Source: a virus
Length of the DNA stretch: 20,987 bases
Reading direction: 5' to 3' (one strand)
Virus record (IMG/VR): IMGVR_UViG_3300025120_000701
Coordinates: 1 to 20,987 of that record
This document shows, in pieces, positions 888 through 16,952 of this stretch. Below the pieces are notes generated by a model. The model had not been told where the DNA came from. It was given only the letters and a program-made list of their open reading frames with translations, and did not search any database. Made by a program: the position numbers and the translations under genes. The first letter of the stretch is position 1; each line of letters opens with the position of its first letter.

Positions 888-2171
888 CTAACTTAGGTCA
901 CCATAATGTTTACCAATCTTAATTTTGATTGGGAATTTTTCACTAAGTATGTTTTCTAAATCTAAAAGTGTTTGTTTACCATCCTGCTTTGACACATCAA
1001 ATATAAATGCATCATATATGTAAAGAACTAATCTTGTTTGTTTTGTTTTTAAATAATCTTGTATAACCTGTATCTTACGAATGTTGGTTTCTGTTTCTGT
1101 AGCTTGAATGTAATAGTTAAATAATTTTTGAGCATGTATTTTAGGATGATCGTCTTTTTTTATACGATAGGATCCTACATCTATATATCCATTTTTATTA
1201 AATTCATCCCAAATAATGTCTATAAATTGTTGTGTTTTAGAAAAGAAAGGGTGATGTAAGTTCGCCTTATCTATACCTCCATATATTTGTTTAAATGTAA
1301 GCGTTTTACTTTCCTTATATTGTTGTGGAGTTATTTTCTTAGATTTAAAGTAAATTTCCGCAAGTGTGTTGTGTACGTTGCCTTCAAATTGATAGTCGAC
1401 TATATCGCCTATTAGACGGGGATGATAACCATCATAATCCATTTCTACAAAAAAGTCATTGTCAGGTTCAAAACTGTCTCTTTCGCCATTGTCGTGTTTT
1501 AGACCCACAAAATTTATTCCATTAAAGTTATTTACAGGACGACCCGTTGTAGTATATGGATTATACCATCCGTATATATGATTTTCTTTTACAGAGAATT
1601 TTTTATTCTTTAATGTAAAGTAATCGTCAAACTTGCTATTAAATTTTAATGCATTTTTTTCTAACTTATGTAAGACAGGTAATAATATTTTATTATAATA
1701 CTCATTAGTTTCCCCACGATACTCTTGGAATATATCGTGTGACTTTTGTTTACAGCGCTCTAGGTGTTTTCCCACAGGTATCATTTTATTCACTTTAGTT
1801 TGCGGGAATTTACGGTAATACCATTGGTGTGTATTAGTTGTATGTTGGTTTAAGGAAGGTATTGTATGTTGTATATCCGTATAAGATAGTTGTGGGGCCG
1901 CATGTAAGCTGCTCTTCTTATCTAAAACACAAAAATCATATCTTTTTAATAAACTAAATATAAGATCTCTGTCTTGATTTATACATTCTAAATGGCTTAA
2001 GGGTATAATAAAATCTTCACCATCAACGTCAAGATATACTGCTATTATTTCTGCTAATTGAGGGTGTGTGTTGTCATTGCCTTGAATAAATTCAAGATAA
2101 CGTGATAGACTAGAAGATAATTTTAATTCTAGTTTGTCTAATTGATTTTTTGTTTCGATAAGATAAAACAT
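888..2171 (-). CDS. Short family A DNA polymerase (polymerase domain, exonuclease apparently inactive)
   Basis: A 427-aa protein carrying the family A polymerase signatures in order: a TTTGRP segment with NFNGINF (207-221); motif A MDYDGYHPR with Asp245; motif B KTLTFKQIYG with Lys289, Phe293 and Tyr297 matching Taq Lys663, Phe667 and Tyr671; an NYYIQATETE segment (352-361) matching the NxxxQGTAAD helix; and motif C IYDAF with Asp387. Both catalytic aspartates are present, but motif C is YDA instead of HDE. Residues 1-85 resemble a shrunken 3'-5' exonuclease domain (compare DVDGEDFIIPLSH with the PGVAAYIPVAH stretch of Pol I); where Pol I has DTE this protein appears to read FIQ, so proofreading is probably lost. 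At under half the Pol I length it lacks a 5' nuclease. An in-frame TAA two codons upstream fixes the start. It follows the baseplate genes by 26 bases. Confidence 0.82.
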   Translation of the reverse strand: MFYLIETKNQLDKLELKLSSSLSRYLEFIQGNDNTHPQLAEIIAVYLDVDGEDFIIPLSHLECINQDRDLIFSLLKRYDFCVLDKKSSLHAAPQLSYTDIQHTIPSLNQHTTNTHQWYYRKFPQTKVNKMIPVGKHLERCKQKSHDIFQEYRGETNEYYNKILLPVLHKLEKNALKFNSKFDDYFTLKNKKFSVKENHIYGWYNPYTTTGRPVNNFNGINFVGLKHDNGERDSFEPDNDFFVEMDYDGYHPRLIGDIVDYQFEGNVHNTLAEIYFKSKKITPQQYKESKTLTFKQIYGGIDKANLHHPFFSKTQQFIDIIWDEFNKNGYIDVGSYRIKKDDHPKIHAQKLFNYYIQATETETNIRKIQVIQDYLKTKQTRLVLYIYDAFIFDVSKQDGKQTLLDLENILSEKFPIKIKIGKHYGDLS

Positions 2172-8879: not shown

Positions 8880-10901
8880 TTAAGCAAATTTAGACTCATA
8901 TCTTGCTGTGCTTTGGTATCTTCCTCCATTTGATGTTGTACTATTAGCGCTAAATGAGTCATATTTTGTTGAAACATTAACTTGGGCTTTAGACATTGCT
9001 GAAGCCATTTTATCATAGTCAATTGGAGCTGATCCGCCTCCACCACCTAAAAGATTGGTTCCTGCTACAACACTATCATTGTTATTAAGCATAATTGCTC
9101 CTTTATTTTTAGTAACAAGTGTATTATTACCATACCCCATATCGTCTGCTTTTGAAGCATTACTTATAAGTCCCATTAATCCTGCTGTAGCTGCTACTGC
9201 TAAAGGTACTCCTAATCCAAAAGGTATGTTTCCAAAAGATCTAAATAATGTTCCTATAGCGGATATTACAGAATATTTTGCCACTAATGCTATACCTCCT
9301 GCAATCACTGCCATTTTACCCCCTGCTGTTCCTAAACCATCAGCAATTAAACCTATAATATCTACTAAAGGAGAAAATACTGCAGCTATATCTATAGCTA
9401 ATCCTTTTACTTGTTCCATTACTTTAGCAAATTTTTCTTGTGTGTCTAATCTTTTTAAATCTTGGACTGCTTGTGTGTTTCCACTTGCAATAGCATCTTG
9501 TAATAATTGTTCTCTGTTTTCTTCTGTTATTAATGAATTAGCTAAATCATCTGCTGTCATTCCAACAGATTTAGCTATTGCTTCTTGTTGTAAAACATTC
9601 ATTTGAGAAAAATCGTTAAAATCACCTACATTAGCTGCTATTTCTTTTGTTAGGGTTTCATAATCTCCTGTTAATGCTGCTAGTCTTGCTTTTTCTAAAT
9701 TTAATTGTTTACCTGTAAGTAATTCTGCTTCTAATTCTGCTTCAATAGATGATTCAAAACCTAATAATGCTTTACCTGAGTTTGCTATTTGTTCTAATTC
9801 AAATCCTAATGCTTTTGCTTGTGTTACTGCTCTTGCTATTGCCTCAGGGTTAGATCCCAATTGAGCTCTAATTTGTCCTGTTATTTTATTAGAATCTTCT
9901 AAAACTGTTTTTAAACTAATTTGAGCTCCCGTTTGTGAATTTATAGCGTTTACTGCATTTTCTTGAGTTTTAAGAGATTCATCAAATGTCATTCCTAATC
10001 TAGCAGCGTCTCCTGACAGTTGTGCTATTGCTTCTCCTGACATTAATTGTGCATCTAATGCTGCAGTAGCACCTACTAATATATCTTTATTAAATACGGC
10101 TGCTGTTTGGAATTCTTTATTAAGAGCTTTGTTTGCTTTTAATATAGCTTCAGTTGTTACCCTTAAATCATTTGCTGTAAAAGCAGCTCCTGCTAATTCA
10201 GCTCTTATAAGAGTTGATTCTGTTCCACTAGTTCCTAATTCTTTTGAAATACCAATTACAGATTTATTACCTGCTATTAGTGCTGTGCCAATAGCTGCTA
10301 GAACTGCTTGAGCTAATTTTGCAGAGCCTGCTATGTCTTCAAAATTTCCTTTTAATACACCAGATAATGTTCCTGATTTGTCTAATTTGTCTAATTGATC
10401 ACCTAAACTTTCTGATATGTCTGCTCCAAAACCTTTTGCTTTTTGGGTTTCTTTATTTTGATTTTCTAATGTTTTAAGATTTGCTATTTCAAGTTTATAC
10501 TGTTCTGTTAATGCTCCTCTTAATTTTAGTTTTTGTTCTGTTGTTAGTCCTTCTGCTTGTGTTATTTTTTGACTAGTTAATAAGGCTCTTACTTTAACTT
10601 TTTCTATTTTTTTATCTATTTCTTTTTGAACATTTATTTCTTTATTTATTTTAAGTTGGAGATTTACATTTTCCTCTAATCCCCCAGACATTTTTTTTAT
10701 AGAACCTACTATGTCTCTTTCATAAGATTTAGCTATTTTAGCTCCTACATTATCAATACCATTAAGATTATCAATAGCATCTTCAAATAGATTAGATAAA
10801 GTAGCAGCAATGGATTTATAAGCATTATCTAAATATCCAGCTTCTACTACTTGTTCTTGTACAAGTTTTTTACCTTTTTCTAATTCGTCGTTATCAGCCA
10901 T
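8880..10901 (-). CDS. Tail tape measure protein
   Basis: A 673-aa protein. Residues 75-160 are a charged, coiled-coil-like helix. Residues 190-490 are Ala-rich helical repeats, including SIEAELEAELLTGKQLNLEK and MTADDLANSL. Hydrophobic segments lie at about 196-211, 502-521, 528-546 and 561-580. After them comes GNNTLVTKNKGAIMLNNNDS followed by VVAGTNL, a C-terminal signature I know from tape measure proteins of marine phages. The tail is Gly/Ser-rich. Position downstream of tube and assembly chaperones and upstream of the baseplate fits the role of spanning the tube lumen and fixing its length. At about 0.15 nm per residue the predicted tail is roughly 100 nm, close to T4. A terminator lies just upstream, so the gene probably has its own promoter in the 10902-10928 gap. 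Confidence 0.83.
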   Translation of the reverse strand: MADNDELEKGKKLVQEQVVEAGYLDNAYKSIAATLSNLFEDAIDNLNGIDNVGAKIAKSYERDIVGSIKKMSGGLEENVNLQLKINKEINVQKEIDKKIEKVKVRALLTSQKITQAEGLTTEQKLKLRGALTEQYKLEIANLKTLENQNKETQKAKGFGADISESLGDQLDKLDKSGTLSGVLKGNFEDIAGSAKLAQAVLAAIGTALIAGNKSVIGISKELGTSGTESTLIRAELAGAAFTANDLRVTTEAILKANKALNKEFQTAAVFNKDILVGATAALDAQLMSGEAIAQLSGDAARLGMTFDESLKTQENAVNAINSQTGAQISLKTVLEDSNKITGQIRAQLGSNPEAIARAVTQAKALGFELEQIANSGKALLGFESSIEAELEAELLTGKQLNLEKARLAALTGDYETLTKEIAANVGDFNDFSQMNVLQQEAIAKSVGMTADDLANSLITEENREQLLQDAIASGNTQAVQDLKRLDTQEKFAKVMEQVKGLAIDIAAVFSPLVDIIGLIADGLGTAGGKMAVIAGGIALVAKYSVISAIGTLFRSFGNIPFGLGVPLAVAATAGLMGLISNASKADDMGYGNNTLVTKNKGAIMLNNNDSVVAGTNLLGGGGGSAPIDYDKMASAMSKAQVNVSTKYDSFSANSTTSNGGRYQSTARYESKFA

Positions 10902-10960: not shown

Positions 10961-11233
10961 TTAAAAATTATATGTTGAAGAAGGATTAATGTTAGGTCCT
11001 ACAGGTCCACTTGAGGGTGAACTTGAATTACCTCTTTTAGCTTCTTCTTGTTTTTTATTTTGCTCTTTATTATATTCATTAATTTTTTGAATATGATATC
11101 TTCTCATCCAAATAGGCATGTTGTATATCTCTGAGTGTATAAATCCACCACCGCCATGGTACACTAGATCATGTATTTGAGTAAAGACTTGGTTTCTATA
11201 TGTCAGTGTCAGGCCAAAAAAAGTTAAGACCAA
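10961..11233 (-). CDS. Second-frame extension of the tail-assembly chaperone (likely made by frameshifting)
   Basis: A 90-codon frame overlapping the last 38 bases of the 248-aa chaperone gene. The recognisable core, FTQIHDLVYHGGGGF then NMPIWMRRYHIQKINEYNKE, resembles small proteins encoded next to the gp26-type gene in marine T4-like phages. That core begins well before the first ATG (codon 39). The only upstream start candidate is a TTG, and an in-frame TAA lies just before it (about 11243). This argues that the frame is read by a ribosome shifting out of the chaperone gene at the T7 run at 11222-11216, giving a protein of about 326 aa. It corresponds by position to the GT extension of other tailed phages. 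The C-terminal 30 residues are polar and Ser/Pro-rich. A terminator follows two bases later. Independent TTG initiation is the alternative. Confidence 0.7.
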   Translation of the reverse strand: MVLTFFGLTLTYRNQVFTQIHDLVYHGGGGFIHSEIYNMPIWMRRYHIQKINEYNKEQNKKQEEAKRGNSSSPSSGPVGPNINPSSTYNF

Positions 11234-11942
11234 TAGGTATTGTTATTTTAACGAAGTCCCCATTTTTATCTTCGTATTCATGAGTTAAATCAATGTCTGG
11301 TTGTACTTCAGCTATATAATTTCTTAATTCTCTAGCATCTCTAGCAAGTAATTCATTGTCAACAAATTCTCTAATTGTTTTTGTTTCAGAATCACCTCCT
11401 ATAGAAGTAATCATATATTTCATTCTAGTAGACACATTTGAAGATGAATTTTTATTTAATCTTTTTAAACCTTTCATTTCGTTAGCTATAGCTTTTTCAT
11501 CTCCATGAGTTAAAAGTTTAAATGTAACTTCTTTTTTTGCTGTAGGTAATGTAAAGAAAAATTTATTTTCATTGTTTATTATTAAAGATTCATTAAGTGA
11601 CTTATCTTCTACTTTTGTTAAATCTGCTTGGTGGGTTTCTCCCTTATGTTCAAATTCATAGTCTTTACCGTAACCTAAAATACGAGCTGCTATTAATACA
11701 GCATTTTTATCTCCTAACAATAAATCATCATAATTAATTGGGGTTATAATAAGAGATTGTAATAATTTATCAATTACTGTTCCATTTTCAATTAAATTTT
11801 GATTAGTTAATATATCTTCTTCTCGAGCTGTCATGTATTTCATTGTAATGGCTCCTTTAGATAATGGGGATTCTTTTGGGTATAATAAACCCTTTGATGG
11901 TAATGTAACTTCCTCTGTGGGAAATTGATGTTGTTGTTCCAT
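11196..11942 (-). CDS. Tail-assembly chaperone of the T4 gp26/base-plate family
   Basis: A 248-aa soluble protein with the family pattern EVTLPSKGLLYPKESPLSKG, then KYMTAREEDILTNQNLI, ENGTVIDKLLQSLI and LLGDKNAVLIAARILGYGKD. This matches the T4 gp26-like base-plate family (Pfam T4_baseplate, from memory). The C-terminal part contains DNELLARDARELRNYIAEVQ and ends IPIGLNFFWPDTDI. It lies between tail tube and tape measure genes, where tailed phages encode tape-measure-binding assembly chaperones. The gene has its own transcription unit: a terminator and a palindromic element lie upstream, and a terminator follows the overlapping frame. The last codons contain TTT TTT TGG, part of a T7 run that allows a shift into the next frame. 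The start is an ATG after AATAAATAAATAACGTT. Confidence 0.78.
   Translation of the reverse strand: MEQQHQFPTEEVTLPSKGLLYPKESPLSKGAITMKYMTAREEDILTNQNLIENGTVIDKLLQSLIITPINYDDLLLGDKNAVLIAARILGYGKDYEFEHKGETHQADLTKVEDKSLNESLIINNENKFFFTLPTAKKEVTFKLLTHGDEKAIANEMKGLKRLNKNSSSNVSTRMKYMITSIGGDSETKTIREFVDNELLARDARELRNYIAEVQPDIDLTHEYEDKNGDFVKITIPIGLNFFWPDTDI
11216..11222 (-). other. Putative programmed ribosomal frameshift site (T7 run)
   Basis: The minus strand reads AAC TTT TTT TGG in the chaperone frame, seven consecutive T's, six codons before the TAG. A Phe-tRNA on the second TTT can re-pair with TTT after moving +1 or -2, after which GGC CTG ACA continues into the 90-codon frame. A -1 move gives TTG GCC TGA and stops at once. 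The window between the in-frame TAA of the second frame (near 11243) and the TAG of the first (11196) contains this single slippery run. I did not find an obvious stimulatory hairpin by eye. Confidence 0.55.
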
Positions 11943-12037: not shown

Positions 12038-12523
12038 TTAGTAATTTAAGATAGCATAATCCATTACTATAGTCATTGAAATGTTTGCTGGTGAATCTGA
12101 TGTCCAATCCATATCACCAAAATTAGCTGATTGACAATAAGCACCTTTTAAAATCCATTCTTCAACTATATCACCTACTGGTCCTAATGTGTTGATTCTA
12201 ATGTCTTTTTTATAAAAATCACTATAACCGTCTCTACCTGTAACTGACTCATGTCCTAATCTTACCCATTCCATTACTGCTTGAGCACCCGATGGAGTGA
12301 TTGGGTCATATAAGTCACATGTAATGTTTTCCCAATTTGCTTTTCCTTTTAATTTTCTTTTCACGTTGATGTGATCAAGAACCACTTCTCCAAATGTTAT
12401 ACTTGGACGTGAAATTTTCTTAATAAGGTATGCTGGAATTCCATCAATAAACATTATAAACCTATTCTGTAATTTAGGTTCAAATGCTGTGAACATAGTT
12501 TCGTTTGTGTCTAATATTGCCAT
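12038..12523 (-). CDS. 19: Tail tube protein (T4 gp19-like)
   Basis: A 161-aa protein, close in length to T4 gp19 (163 aa). Family features include the N-terminal NETMFTAFEPKLQNRFIMFI and the strands IKKISRPSITFGEVVLDHIN, then WENITCDLYDPITPSGAQAV, WILKGAYCQSANFGDMDW and a C-terminal ISMTIVMDYAILNY. Gp19-like proteins stack as hexameric rings to form the inner tube through which DNA passes after sheath contraction. It directly follows the sheath gene (49-base gap), as in T4. A strong terminator follows. The start has A-rich upstream sequence (AATAAATAAAATAAAAAG) and no Shine-Dalgarno motif. Confidence 0.92.
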   Translation of the reverse strand: MAILDTNETMFTAFEPKLQNRFIMFIDGIPAYLIKKISRPSITFGEVVLDHINVKRKLKGKANWENITCDLYDPITPSGAQAVMEWVRLGHESVTGRDGYSDFYKKDIRINTLGPVGDIVEEWILKGAYCQSANFGDMDWTSDSPANISMTIVMDYAILNY

Positions 12524-12572: not shown

Positions 12573-15200
12573 TTATGAATCAAATGTTGCTCCAGTTGGT
12601 AGTACATTGAAATCTAAGATTATAAATTCAGCTGTTTTAGTTGGTTGTAAAAATATTTGGCCAACTAATTGATTTCTATCAATTTCAGCTGCTGTGTTAT
12701 TATTTTCATCCATTTGTACTCTAAAGGCAAATAATCCTTGTCTTTGTTGTACTGACTCTAAATATGGATTTACTATATTTAAGAATCTATTTCTAGTAGC
12801 TTGTGTATTTTGTTCAAATACTAAGAATTTAGAAGAACTTCCAATAAATTTCTTAAGAGCAATTAATAATCTACGAACATTAATTCTATCTAATGCTGAA
12901 GCTTTTTCTTGAAGTGTTTTTTGTCCCCAAATACAAACTCCAGTTGCTGGGAATGTTGCAATTGGGTTAATTTTAGCATCGTATAATGTGTCTCTTTCAG
13001 CTTGATTTAATCTTGTTTTAGCTTCTAATACATTTCCTAATACACCTCTATTTAAACCTGCTGGTGCAAACCATTCTGCAGCAATTGCGTCTGAAGCTGC
13101 TATAGCTCCTGGTACTATTACTGATGGTGGTACTAATACTGGTTTATTTATTGAAGTGTCTAACACTTTAACCCATGGGTAATAAACTGCTGCGTAGTTA
13201 GTGTCTAAACCACTTACTTCGTTTACTGCTGAATTTACTGAAGTATTATATTGAGCTAAATCCATTACATAAAATGCATCTCCTCTTTCTTCTACCATAT
13301 CAATTGCAGCATTTGTTACTGCTGAGTGTCTTTGTTTAAGTACACCTGGTAATGCTAACATGTTAATATCGTATTCATCTTGATTTGAAAGTATAGTTAG
13401 TGCTTTTTTATAAGCTGTTGTTCCAACTCCAGTTGATGTACTTAAATCAAAGCCATATAGATTAGTTCCTGCTGTATAAGCGGATGCTAGTGTACTTTCA
13501 TTTCCTATAAATTTAACTCTATGAGTTGGTATACCATCTGTTCCACCCTGGAATGGTACTGAGAATTTAAGTTGGTTAGCTGTTGGTCCATTTACTCCTG
13601 TTGGGTCTAATGAAGCACTTAAACTGCCTGCAAATGCACTTGAATTTGCGTGGCCATTAAAGTTTTCAACATTAAATGCTCCTGCTACGTTATTTTCTAT
13701 TGTATTTGGTAATGGTTTTACAAAGTTTTTATTATCGTATGATTTATCTTCAAATTTCCATCCTAAATATCCTCTTGAATTAAAGTCTGTACCTGTAGAT
13801 GCTGTTTTTTGTACTCCTTCGTAAGATGCTGAAGGAAATACTACTGTATAAGCACTTGCATTATTATTTATTATACCACTACCACTAAATACTGTTGTAG
13901 CTATAGGATTAGTTAATACAGCAAATCCTTTAGGTGATAATTTAGGTGATGTAGCTTTAGCATCTACTGCTGTGTCTACTTCTACTCTAACATATTCTGA
14001 AATATTAGGATAATTTCCAAGTAATTCTACTTTTCCTAATGTTTCATTATATTGTGGGAATCTATCTCCTATTACTCTTGAAATATAATTTGGAGAATCT
14101 GGATCTAAATTACAATTATTGTATTGTTCTAATATTAATGGAGTTTTATCTGTATCATTATATCTTCTTAAAATTACAGAGAAAATAGAATATTGTGGAA
14201 CACCATCTATATCTGCTGGTTCTCTTAAATTAGCAATAGAAATTTTAAATTTAGTATTCATTTCTCTACCATGAGATATTGTATGAATTTTAAATAAATT
14301 TTTACTACCTAATGCTTTACCTGATTGGATAAATGGTGTTGAAGCGTATGAATATTTTTCAGTTGTACCTGTTAACCCACTATATGTTAAAGTAGTTCCT
14401 TGGGTTACTAATTGAATAACTACCCCATCAAATAATGAACTTGATGGAGATGTTAAAGTTGTTGATATACCATGATTAGTAAATTGTGTTCCTGCTGTAT
14501 CTGCTAATAATGTAGTTATTTTATCTTTAAATTCTAATTCAGCATATCCTGGTATACCATTATATGCATCAACTGCTGTTTTACTATTATCTGGTGTATC
14601 ACCTAATAATTTAACCCAATATTTATTACTTGTTGGGGTAAGTGAAGCATCAAAAGTAGTAGAAAAAGACGTTGCTGAACCTGATAATTTTATTTGTAAT
14701 GTACCTGCTATTGATGCAGATGTAATGTAAGATGAACCAGTAATAGTACCTAAACTACCAGAACTACCCATATTTAATGGATCAGATGCATTAGTTAAAA
14801 CTGAATCTTTTAGATCTGGTAAAGCGTCTGTGTCTTTAGATGGAAAAATTGCACCTAAAAATAATCCTTTACTTGAACCTGAAGGGAAAGCAGCTAATGC
14901 TACTACTTCATTAGTACTTGTTGTGTAAGTAGCTCCTCCACCACCTAATACTCTAGTTACAGTAACTGATCCTGCACTTCTTAAGTATTCTCTAACTGTT
15001 TGTGGAACGAATGTTTCAGAGCTTAAAGTTCCAAATTTTCTTTCGTATTCTGCGAAACTTTTTACTACTGTTGGTACAAAAGCTGGTCCTTCTACTGTAG
15101 GTCCAACAATTGCAGCGCCTATTGCGCCAATTCCTGCTGGTAAAAATGAAAGGTCGTTTTCTCTTGTAAAAACACCTGGTGAAATAATTTGTTCTGCCAT
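12573..15200 (-). CDS. 18: Contractile tail sheath protein
   Basis: An 875-aa protein with sheath hallmarks: an N-terminus ISPGVFTRENDLSFLPAGIG and FVPTVVKSFAEYERKFG; a middle segment FSVILRRYNDTDKTPLILEQ followed by NLDPDSPNYISRVIGDRFPQ; the core LDTSINKPVLVPPSVIVPGA and AEWFAPAGLNRG; and a C-terminal domain FRVQMDENNNTAAEIDRNQL followed by AEFIILDFNVLPTGA. Gp18-like sheaths surround the tube and contract on infection. It is about 215 residues longer than T4 gp18 (659 aa). Much of the excess is probably the Ser/Thr/Gly-rich region at about 95-330, likely surface-exposed domains. The tube gene follows. The start has an A-rich leader and no Shine-Dalgarno sequence. Confidence 0.93.
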   Translation of the reverse strand: MAEQIISPGVFTRENDLSFLPAGIGAIGAAIVGPTVEGPAFVPTVVKSFAEYERKFGTLSSETFVPQTVREYLRSAGSVTVTRVLGGGGATYTTSTNEVVALAAFPSGSSKGLFLGAIFPSKDTDALPDLKDSVLTNASDPLNMGSSGSLGTITGSSYITSASIAGTLQIKLSGSATSFSTTFDASLTPTSNKYWVKLLGDTPDNSKTAVDAYNGIPGYAELEFKDKITTLLADTAGTQFTNHGISTTLTSPSSSLFDGVVIQLVTQGTTLTYSGLTGTTEKYSYASTPFIQSGKALGSKNLFKIHTISHGREMNTKFKISIANLREPADIDGVPQYSIFSVILRRYNDTDKTPLILEQYNNCNLDPDSPNYISRVIGDRFPQYNETLGKVELLGNYPNISEYVRVEVDTAVDAKATSPKLSPKGFAVLTNPIATTVFSGSGIINNNASAYTVVFPSASYEGVQKTASTGTDFNSRGYLGWKFEDKSYDNKNFVKPLPNTIENNVAGAFNVENFNGHANSSAFAGSLSASLDPTGVNGPTANQLKFSVPFQGGTDGIPTHRVKFIGNESTLASAYTAGTNLYGFDLSTSTGVGTTAYKKALTILSNQDEYDINMLALPGVLKQRHSAVTNAAIDMVEERGDAFYVMDLAQYNTSVNSAVNEVSGLDTNYAAVYYPWVKVLDTSINKPVLVPPSVIVPGAIAASDAIAAEWFAPAGLNRGVLGNVLEAKTRLNQAERDTLYDAKINPIATFPATGVCIWGQKTLQEKASALDRINVRRLLIALKKFIGSSSKFLVFEQNTQATRNRFLNIVNPYLESVQQRQGLFAFRVQMDENNNTAAEIDRNQLVGQIFLQPTKTAEFIILDFNVLPTGATFDS

Positions 15201-16385: not shown

Positions 16386-16952
16386 CTAAAACTGTTTTTT
16401 TGGTAAATAATAAGTTGTACTATTAAAATAACTGTTTGTTGGTGGATCAATAATTACAGCTTGATAAGTTACATTAGGTATACTGTAAAAATTAGTTTCA
16501 TCAGTATTATTATTCCACCAAGTTACTTTAGTGTTTGATTTTGTTAAAGCACTTAAAGATGAACTAAAATTTTTCATGTTTTGATCACCAAAAGTATCAT
16601 AAAATATACCATCGTATGTTAATAGTGAATCTTTGACATCATACCAACTACCTGTTATAATAGTTACATTAGATTTATTTGAAGCCCATGCTTGAGCTTT
16701 AGATACTATGTTGGGATGGTTTTCTATTATGGTGTGTGTTGAAATTGAATGAGAATGCATATAACCTGCTGATATTCCCATTCCAAATCCTATTTCTAAA
16801 ATATCTCCTCCGTTTTCACACACGTAAGCTGCTGAAGCTGACATTAAAGGATCTTCCCAATCCATCATAACTTCAAAGTCTCCTCCAAAAGATGTGTCTG
16901 TGTAGTATATCTTATCTGATTTGAATGTTAATGTTTTGTTTGTGTAACTCAT
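16386..16952 (-). CDS. SAM-dependent methyltransferase resembling guanidinoacetate/arginine N-methyltransferases
   Basis: A 188-aa class I methyltransferase. Its motifs match guanidinoacetate N-methyltransferase (GAMT) and the related Rmt2 group one by one. VMMDWEDPLM (28-37) matches VMERWETPYM; ILEIGFGMGIS (51-61) matches VLEVGFGMAIA, the SAM-binding loop; HTIIENHPNI (73-82) matches HWIIECNDGV, with the ribose-binding acidic residue at Glu77; GSWYDV (101-106) matches GLWEDV; DGIFYDTF (114-121) matches DGILYDTY. The C-terminal DPPTNSYFNSTTYYLP aligns with VPPADCRYYAFP. Glu33 and Asp119 correspond to the GAMT residues that hold the guanidino group, so a guanidino substrate (arginine side chain or small molecule) is plausible. 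It is shorter than GAMT (236 aa), mainly in the middle. The ATG overlaps the fibre stop (TAATG), and the next gene begins directly after its TAG. Confidence 0.82.
   Translation of the reverse strand: MSYTNKTLTFKSDKIYYTDTSFGGDFEVMMDWEDPLMSASAAYVCENGGDILEIGFGMGISAGYMHSHSISTHTIIENHPNIVSKAQAWASNKSNVTIITGSWYDVKDSLLTYDGIFYDTFGDQNMKNFSSSLSALTKSNTKVTWWNNNTDETNFYSIPNVTYQAVIIDPPTNSYFNSTTYYLPKKQF

What the first reader, a model, noticed from the sequence alone, without database searches (positions are those of the whole stretch)
11190..11245. Probable programmed +1 or -2 frameshift in the tail-assembly chaperone gene
Between tail tube and tape measure genes most tailed phages make two chaperones by frameshifting (lambda G/GT; -2 in Mu; +1 in Listeria phage PSA). 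Here the 248-aa chaperone ends with TTT TTT TGG, and a second frame overlaps it whose core starts long before any ATG. Only a +1 or -2 move at the T7 run joins the frames; -1 stops at once. Gp26-family genes in T4 are not known to me to use this, so it would link the T4-like gp26 family to the G/GT system.
Basis: partly seen in the sequence, partly recalled or inferred. Interest (0 to 1): 0.72.

Follow-up and report, generated by a model that had tools for sequence, protein, structure and literature searches.

The report
Ribosome frameshift in phage tail chaperone
A marine virus and its many relatives almost certainly make two versions of one tail-building helper protein by letting the ribosome slip forward one base at an unusually conserved spot; the trick is known from other phages, but this forward-slip site in the T4-type helper family appears not to have been described.

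Summary
The 248-aa gene between tail tube and tape measure (G, window 11196-11942, minus strand) is overlapped by a second frame (T) that continues it only by +1 or -2. In 124 related loci, including three cultured phages, T is always in the +1 frame. The junction is always [T/C]TT TGG, nearly always [T/C]TT TGG CCT GA. A 17-base DNA pattern of the site, searched blind in viral contigs, lay at the end of this gene in 80 of 80 loci read. T between the G stop and the usual first in-frame ATG is under strong purifying selection (dN/dS 0.11). The T7 run is not the signal: relatives have TTC TTT TGG or TTT CTT TGG, which favours +1 slippage of the P-site tRNA and argues against -2 and against RNA-polymerase slippage. 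The link of T4 gp26/gp51 to the G/GT system is already published (Vladimirov et al. 2022, seen only through citing papers). I reproduced it: gp26 is a short and gp51 a long paralogue; cyanophages instead carry a -1 site, T TTT TTC. What looks new is the conserved +1 site in this branch, plus a lead that contractile injection systems (DUF6760) use the same device. No protein was measured.

The parts
11196..11942 (-). G: tail assembly chaperone, short form, 248 aa (gp26-family, phrog_150 'baseplate hub')
   Evidence: ORF; phrog_150 E 3.9e-10 over 5-243; lies between tube 12038-12523 and tape measure 8880-10901; structure model pLDDT 90 whose few best PDB chains include the HK97 tail assembly chaperone
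11209..11219 (-). conserved frameshift site [T/C]TTTGGCCTGA (here TTTTGGCCTGA): P-site codon TTT 11219-11217 slips +1 onto 11218-11216, A-site codon TGG 11216-11214
   Evidence: P-site plus A-site [T/C]TT TGG in 65/65 clusters at 80% identity; 80/80 blind pattern loci at the end of G
11216..11222 (-).
   Evidence: variants TTCTTTTGG in L282-L296 and TTTCTTTGG in L037 and others
10964..11215 (-). T: +1-frame extension, 84 codons from GGC; stop at 10961-10963; DUF6760-like
   Evidence: open frame; dN/dS 0.11 before the first ATG; Pfam DUF6760 E 1.2e-5, just under the curated cut-off
10964..11942 (-). GT: predicted 326-aa fusion (242 residues of G, then 84 of T)
   Evidence: translation with one +1 step; inferred product, not measured
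11117..11119 (-). first ATG of the T frame, inside the conserved core (NMPIW)
   Evidence: first ATG at this offset (96 nt after the slip) in 49 of 65 clusters

Best explanation
G and T are the two parts of a lambda-type tail assembly chaperone pair. Most ribosomes translate G to its stop (248 aa). A minority pause with a Phe (or Leu) tRNA on [T/C]TT in the P site and the rare Trp codon TGG in the A site; the P-site tRNA slips one base forward onto TTT, the next codon read is GGC, and translation runs on through T to give GT (326 aa). G would coat the tape measure protein and GT would recruit tube subunits to it. Shown here: gene order, open frames, the conserved site, selection on T before any usual ATG, frame constancy. 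Inferred: the +1 direction, the Trp-codon pause, the minority ratio, and the chaperone roles (by homology with lambda G/GT).
For: T is in the +1 frame of G in 105/105 distinct loci of the first set and fits in 124/124 in all, cultured Immutovirus, Mel-JY01 and RM378 included. 65 clusters at 80% identity: P-site codon TTT 60, CTT 5, always followed by TGG; TGG occurs only 4 other times in those 65 genes; Leu is CTT 5/5 against a 16% background, Phe TTT 60/60 against 87%. A DNA-only pattern hit the end of G in 80/80 loci, with T in the +1 frame in 78; the other two run off the contig end. Non-overlapping T codons before the usual first ATG: dN/dS 0.11 in that frame, 1.4 and 2.8 in the others. 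19/65 clusters have no ATG, GTG or TTG at all in the open T frame upstream of the slip. Homologues show the same pair by other routes: -1 site T TTT TTC in cyanophage-type viruses with an upstream SD-like GAGGG in 66/74, an in-frame fusion in L252, T4 gp26 short and gp51 long.
Against: No protein, reporter or ribosome-profiling data. No conserved RNA structure (RNAalifold 0.0, mean z -0.4) and no SD-like stimulator at the +1 site (6/65), so what drives the slip rests on the codons alone. WPD is also conserved as protein sequence in G, so part of the base conservation comes from dual coding. Two relatives (L293, L297) have a separate T gene with an ATG. Sequences are related, so counts are not independent.
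Confidence: 0.9

Rival explanations
1. The frames are joined by a -2 slip, as in phage Mu, adding one Phe more to the junction.
For: The arithmetic fits, and in the window T7 allows TTT to re-pair two bases back.
Against: In L282-L296 (TTC TTT TGG) a -2 move would put the Phe tRNA on TCT; the only re-pairing kept in all variants is +1 onto TTT.
Confidence: 0.06
2. T is a separate small gene started at its own codon (TTG, GTG or an internal ATG), possibly by translational coupling with the G stop.
For: L293 and L297 have such a gene with an ATG just after the G stop; 46 of 65 clusters have some ATG, GTG or TTG upstream in the open frame.
Against: The upstream starts are not conserved (19/65 have none); the usual first ATG is inside the core; purifying selection is stronger before that ATG than after it (dN/dS 0.11 against 0.30). 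It would not explain the invariant slip site.
Confidence: 0.04
3. RNA polymerase slippage on the T run makes mRNAs of two lengths.
For: The window has seven Ts.
Against: Relatives with TTCTTTTGG or TTTCTTTGG have runs of only four or three Ts and keep the frame relation.
Confidence: 0.01
4. Assembly or sequencing error, or a decayed gene.
For: Homopolymers are error-prone.
Against: Same frame relation in 124 independent or related loci, including cultured, complete phage genomes.
Confidence: 0.005

Closest known systems
Lambda G/GT tail assembly chaperones and their relatives (Xu, Hendrix & Duda 2004; reviewed in PMC5009743)
   Same: Place between tube and tape measure, short and frameshifted long form, T part without its own start, conserved slip site.
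   Different: Lambda shifts -1; here the site is a +1 site with a Trp codon, and the protein belongs to the T4 gp26 family.
T4 gp26/gp51 as tail assembly chaperones (Vladimirov et al. 2022, as cited in PMC10885494 and PMC12846349)
   Same: Same protein superfamily; T4 has the short and the long form.
   Different: T4 has them as two genes, gp26 (short) and gp51 (long fusion), without a frameshift; the window has one gene with a +1 site.
Cyanophage gp26 with the short 'gp51' (PMC3037559)
   Same: G followed by an overlapping T; the 2010 paper noted that cyanophage gp51 lacks about 200 N-terminal residues.
   Different: Frame is -1, site T TTT TTC with an SD-like GAGGG upstream.
HF1-like haloviruses, suspected +1 at TTT-CGC (PMC7230728), and HSTV-2 (PMC5009743)
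   Same: Contractile-tailed, +1 between tube and tape measure, no classical slippery run, UUU P-site codon.
   Different: No phrog_150 match in HF2 or HSTV-2; A-site codon CGC instead of TGG; not shown to be homologous.
Vandenendeviridae/Andersonviridae chaperone, -1 at GTTTTT (PMC12846349)
   Same: Comparative-genomics evidence of the same type for a myovirus chaperone.
   Different: -1 direction; homology to this family not tested here.

Membership tests
G/GT tail assembly chaperone frameshift system | two overlapping frames between tail tube and tape measure | tested here: met
   Tube (phrog_4542 E 1e-26) 12038-12523, G 11196-11942, T to 10961, then the 673-aa gene 8880-10901. The tape measure is assigned by place and length, with no family hit.
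G/GT tail assembly chaperone frameshift system | conserved slip site joining the frames | tested here: met
G/GT tail assembly chaperone frameshift system | T part translated as an extension, without its own start | tested here: met
   no conserved start before the core; dN/dS 0.11 there. Indirect evidence.
G/GT tail assembly chaperone frameshift system | both products made in a fixed ratio and required for tail assembly | not testable with these tools
   needs mass spectrometry, reporters and mutants
G/GT tail assembly chaperone frameshift system | tail assembly chaperone fold of G | tested here: inconclusive
   Model residues 1-93: 3klu (YqbN) Z 5.6, HK97 chaperone 2ob9 Z 5.2, 5ir0 Z 4.0, next row 2.6; L252 fusion: 2ob9 Z 5.8, 3fgx Z 5.7. 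All below Z 8; Foldseek alone had no hit at E under 0.6.
T4 gp26 family (phrog_150 / Pfam PF12322 T4_baseplate) | profile match over the whole protein | tested here: inconclusive
   phrog_150 E 3.9e-10 over 5-243; structural neighbours are T4-like baseplate hub proteins; linked through SP-15, Atu_ph07 and MIJ3. But no PF12322 match at E up to 1 and no direct hhalign match to T4 gp26.
DUF6760 (PF20546) | score at or above the Pfam cut-off | tested here: inconclusive
   Window T 25.6 bits against cut-off 27, E 1.2e-5; a profile of the injection-system T reaches phage T domains at E 4e-4.
RF2-type +1 frameshift | upstream SD-like element and stop codon in the A site | tested here: not met
   SD-like in 6/65; A-site codon is TGG. 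It may still work like it: NTT slipping to TTT.

The most novel reading that the evidence does not exclude
Recoding is the usual way of making the long form across one chaperone superfamily that spans marine and T4-like phages, jumbo phages and the contractile injection systems of bacteria and archaea. The direction has changed in evolution (+1 at [T/C]TT TGG, +1 at NCC CGA, -1 at T TTT TTC, -1 at G GGG GAA or T TTT TTG), and a few lineages left it by gene duplication (T4), in-frame fusion (L252) or a separate T gene (L293, L297). In injection systems DUF6760 would then be the T domain and not a free protein.
Probability: 0.6. Interest if true: 0.68.

Novelty: new variant of a known kind. Interest (0 to 1): 0.5.

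Why it matters
It gives a +1 frameshift site that is nearly invariant across a large, abundant group of marine viruses, with no RNA structure or SD-like helper visible, so it is a clean natural case for testing P-site slippage before a rare Trp codon. It corrects annotation: in these phages T is left out or called a short gene starting inside its core (for example immuto35A_232). It also offers an explanation for the cyanophage gp51 that was noted in 2010 as lacking its first ~200 residues. The lead on injection systems, if it holds, would mean that the DUF6760 protein of toxin-delivery machines is made as a fusion, which matters for anyone who rebuilds such gene clusters.

Tried and rejected
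T7GG as evidence by itself: rejected, at chance level in the window. Reading the finding as the first link between T4 gp26 and G/GT: rejected after the citations to Vladimirov et al. 2022 turned up; the paper itself is not held. Downstream RNA structure as stimulator: no consensus structure. SD-like stimulator at the +1 site: absent in 59/65. Haloviruses HF2 and HSTV-2 as members: no phrog_150 match. A mixed alignment of G and T fragments misplaced the G ends, so A5 was used. A first gp26 family set was contaminated with gp51 because the two find each other by BLASTP; redone with minus-strand genes only. Direct profile comparison of window G with T4 gp26 or gp51: no match; the link is through phrog_150, SP-15, Atu_ph07 and MIJ3.

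Full report
What is there. The window is a 20,987-base IMG/VR virus record with a contractile-tail module on the minus strand: sheath 12573-15200, tube 12038-12523, G 11196-11942, T to 10961, then a 673-aa gene 8880-10901 that is the tape measure by place and length only. G ends ...AAC TTT TTT TGG CCT GAC ACT GAC ATA TAG. The second frame can be joined only by +1 or -2; -1 stops at TGA within two codons. One +1 step gives a 326-aa protein.

Is it more than chance? The T7GG string is not: two in the window, 0.95 expected. Conservation is. Two protein searches of viral contigs gave 105 distinct junctions, all with T in the +1 frame. Adding 16 more distant loci and three cultured phages (Immutovirus, Mel-JY01, RM378) gives 124. 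In 65 clusters at 80% identity the P-site codon is TTT (60) or CTT (5) and the next codon is always TGG; 63 of 65 continue CCT GA, 64 of 65 CCT or its equivalent dual-coding frame, RM378 being the exception with TGG AAT. Tryptophan is otherwise almost absent from these genes (4 TGG in all 65). Leucine at the slip is CTT in 5 of 5 against a background of 16%.

Is T translated from before its first ATG? Codons of T that lie after the G stop and before the usual first ATG (offset 96, found there in 49 of 65 clusters) show pairwise dN/dS 0.11 in the T frame and 1.4 and 2.8 in the other two; after that ATG it is 0.30 (90 related sequences, so a summary and not a test). In 19 of 65 clusters there is no ATG, GTG or TTG at all in the open T frame upstream of the slip.

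Direction. Three site variants exist: TTT TTT TGG, TTT CTT TGG and TTC TTT TGG. A +1 move lets the P-site tRNA re-pair on TTT in each. A -2 move would place the Phe tRNA on TCT in the third. RNA-polymerase slippage is unlikely on runs of three or four Ts. RM378 lacks CCTGA but keeps TTTTTTTGG, which puts the shift at [T/C]TT T and not at CCT. I found no conserved downstream structure and an SD-like element in only 6 of 65. The pause at a rare Trp codon is an inference.

The family. Window G matches phrog_150, the family of T4 gp26 and gp51. Pfam PF12322 covers T4 gp26 1-206 and gp51 1-201, and the cyanophage and SP-15 G proteins, though it does not reach the window G. gp26 and gp51 families align at hhalign probability 99.1, E 8e-19, up to gp51 residue 203 where gp26 ends; the cyanophage G+T product aligns to gp51 across the junction (98.5%, E 1.6e-15). 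The cyanophage T profile finds the gp51 C-terminus. So T4 has a short and a long copy. This is already published: PMC10885494 describes T4-like phages with one short and one long fusion gene, citing Vladimirov et al. 2022, and PMC12846349 cites the same paper for poly-T -1 signals in T4-like phages. I could not read that paper, so I cannot tell whether it lists +1 sites.

Other solutions in the same family. Cyanophage-type viruses: 72 of 73 distinct loci have T TTT TTC within four codons of the G stop and T in the -1 frame; 66 of 74 have an SD-like motif upstream, with GAG in 64 of 74 where Glu is GAG 30% of the time elsewhere. In 49 of 74 there is an ATG nine bases into T, so separate initiation is not excluded there. 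Atu_ph07, MIJ3 and LR756511 also have T TTT TTC. SP-15, LIS04 and GXN1 have +1 frames with NCC CGA. L252 is fused in frame, with no second copy in its 236-kb record. L293 and L297 have a separate T with its own ATG.

Structure. The G model (pLDDT 90) has as neighbours in the viral library SP-15 and T4-like baseplate hub proteins. Among PDB chains the aligner's best were YqbN 3klu (Z 5.6), HK97 tail assembly chaperone 2ob9 (5.2) and 5ir0 (4.0), then 2.6; for the L252 fusion 2ob9 (5.8) and 3fgx (5.7), then 2.6. These stand apart from the rest but are under Z 8, so I call the fold suggestive.

Verdict. A programmed +1 frameshift making a short and a long tail assembly chaperone is very likely (0.9), and +1 more likely than -2. 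The kind is known; the site and its spread in this group look new within the literature I could search.

Noticed in passing
L345-L424 (genome contigs; e.g. L345 around 1495); L178:3627-4159: In contractile injection system loci of bacteria and archaea the DUF6760 frame lies in the -1 frame of the upstream 'phage tail assembly protein'; 52 of 78 distinct loci have no ATG/GTG/TTG before the conserved start, and G GGG GAA or T TTT TTG/A motifs are common at the junction. The upstream protein's profile hits LIS04 and GXN1 G at E 2e-7 to 6e-7.
   Followed up: partly
L252:1001-1891: Natural in-frame G-T fusion in a 236-kb contig; at its TTT TGG a +1 slip would reach a stop at once and give the short form, the reverse of the window's arrangement. 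One record only, from metagenome assembly.
   Followed up: partly
L293:1711-2028 and L297: T domain as a separate gene with its own ATG just after the G stop, in the -1 frame.
   Followed up: partly
L201-L280: Cyanophage-type gp26 genes have T TTT TTC plus an SD-like GAGGG about 10 nt upstream, the layout of a -1 frameshift cassette; this may explain the short cyanophage gp51 noted in PMC3037559.
   Followed up: yes
L163, L164, L165: SP-15, GXN1 and LIS04 have the second frame at +1 with NCC CGA as the shared junction motif instead of [T/C]TT TGG.
   Followed up: partly
L176:2501-3794; L338-L343: In RB43-type phages a gp26-like ORF follows gp51 on the same strand, whereas in T4 the two genes are on opposite strands.
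   Followed up: no
888-2171 (-): 427-aa protein with a sub-threshold match to DNA polymerase family A (PF00476, E 4e-6) next to the tail genes.
   Followed up: no
16386-16952 (-): 188-aa protein with a methyltransferase-like stretch (ILEIGFGMG) beside the fibre-like 1178-aa gene; seen by eye, not searched.
   Followed up: no
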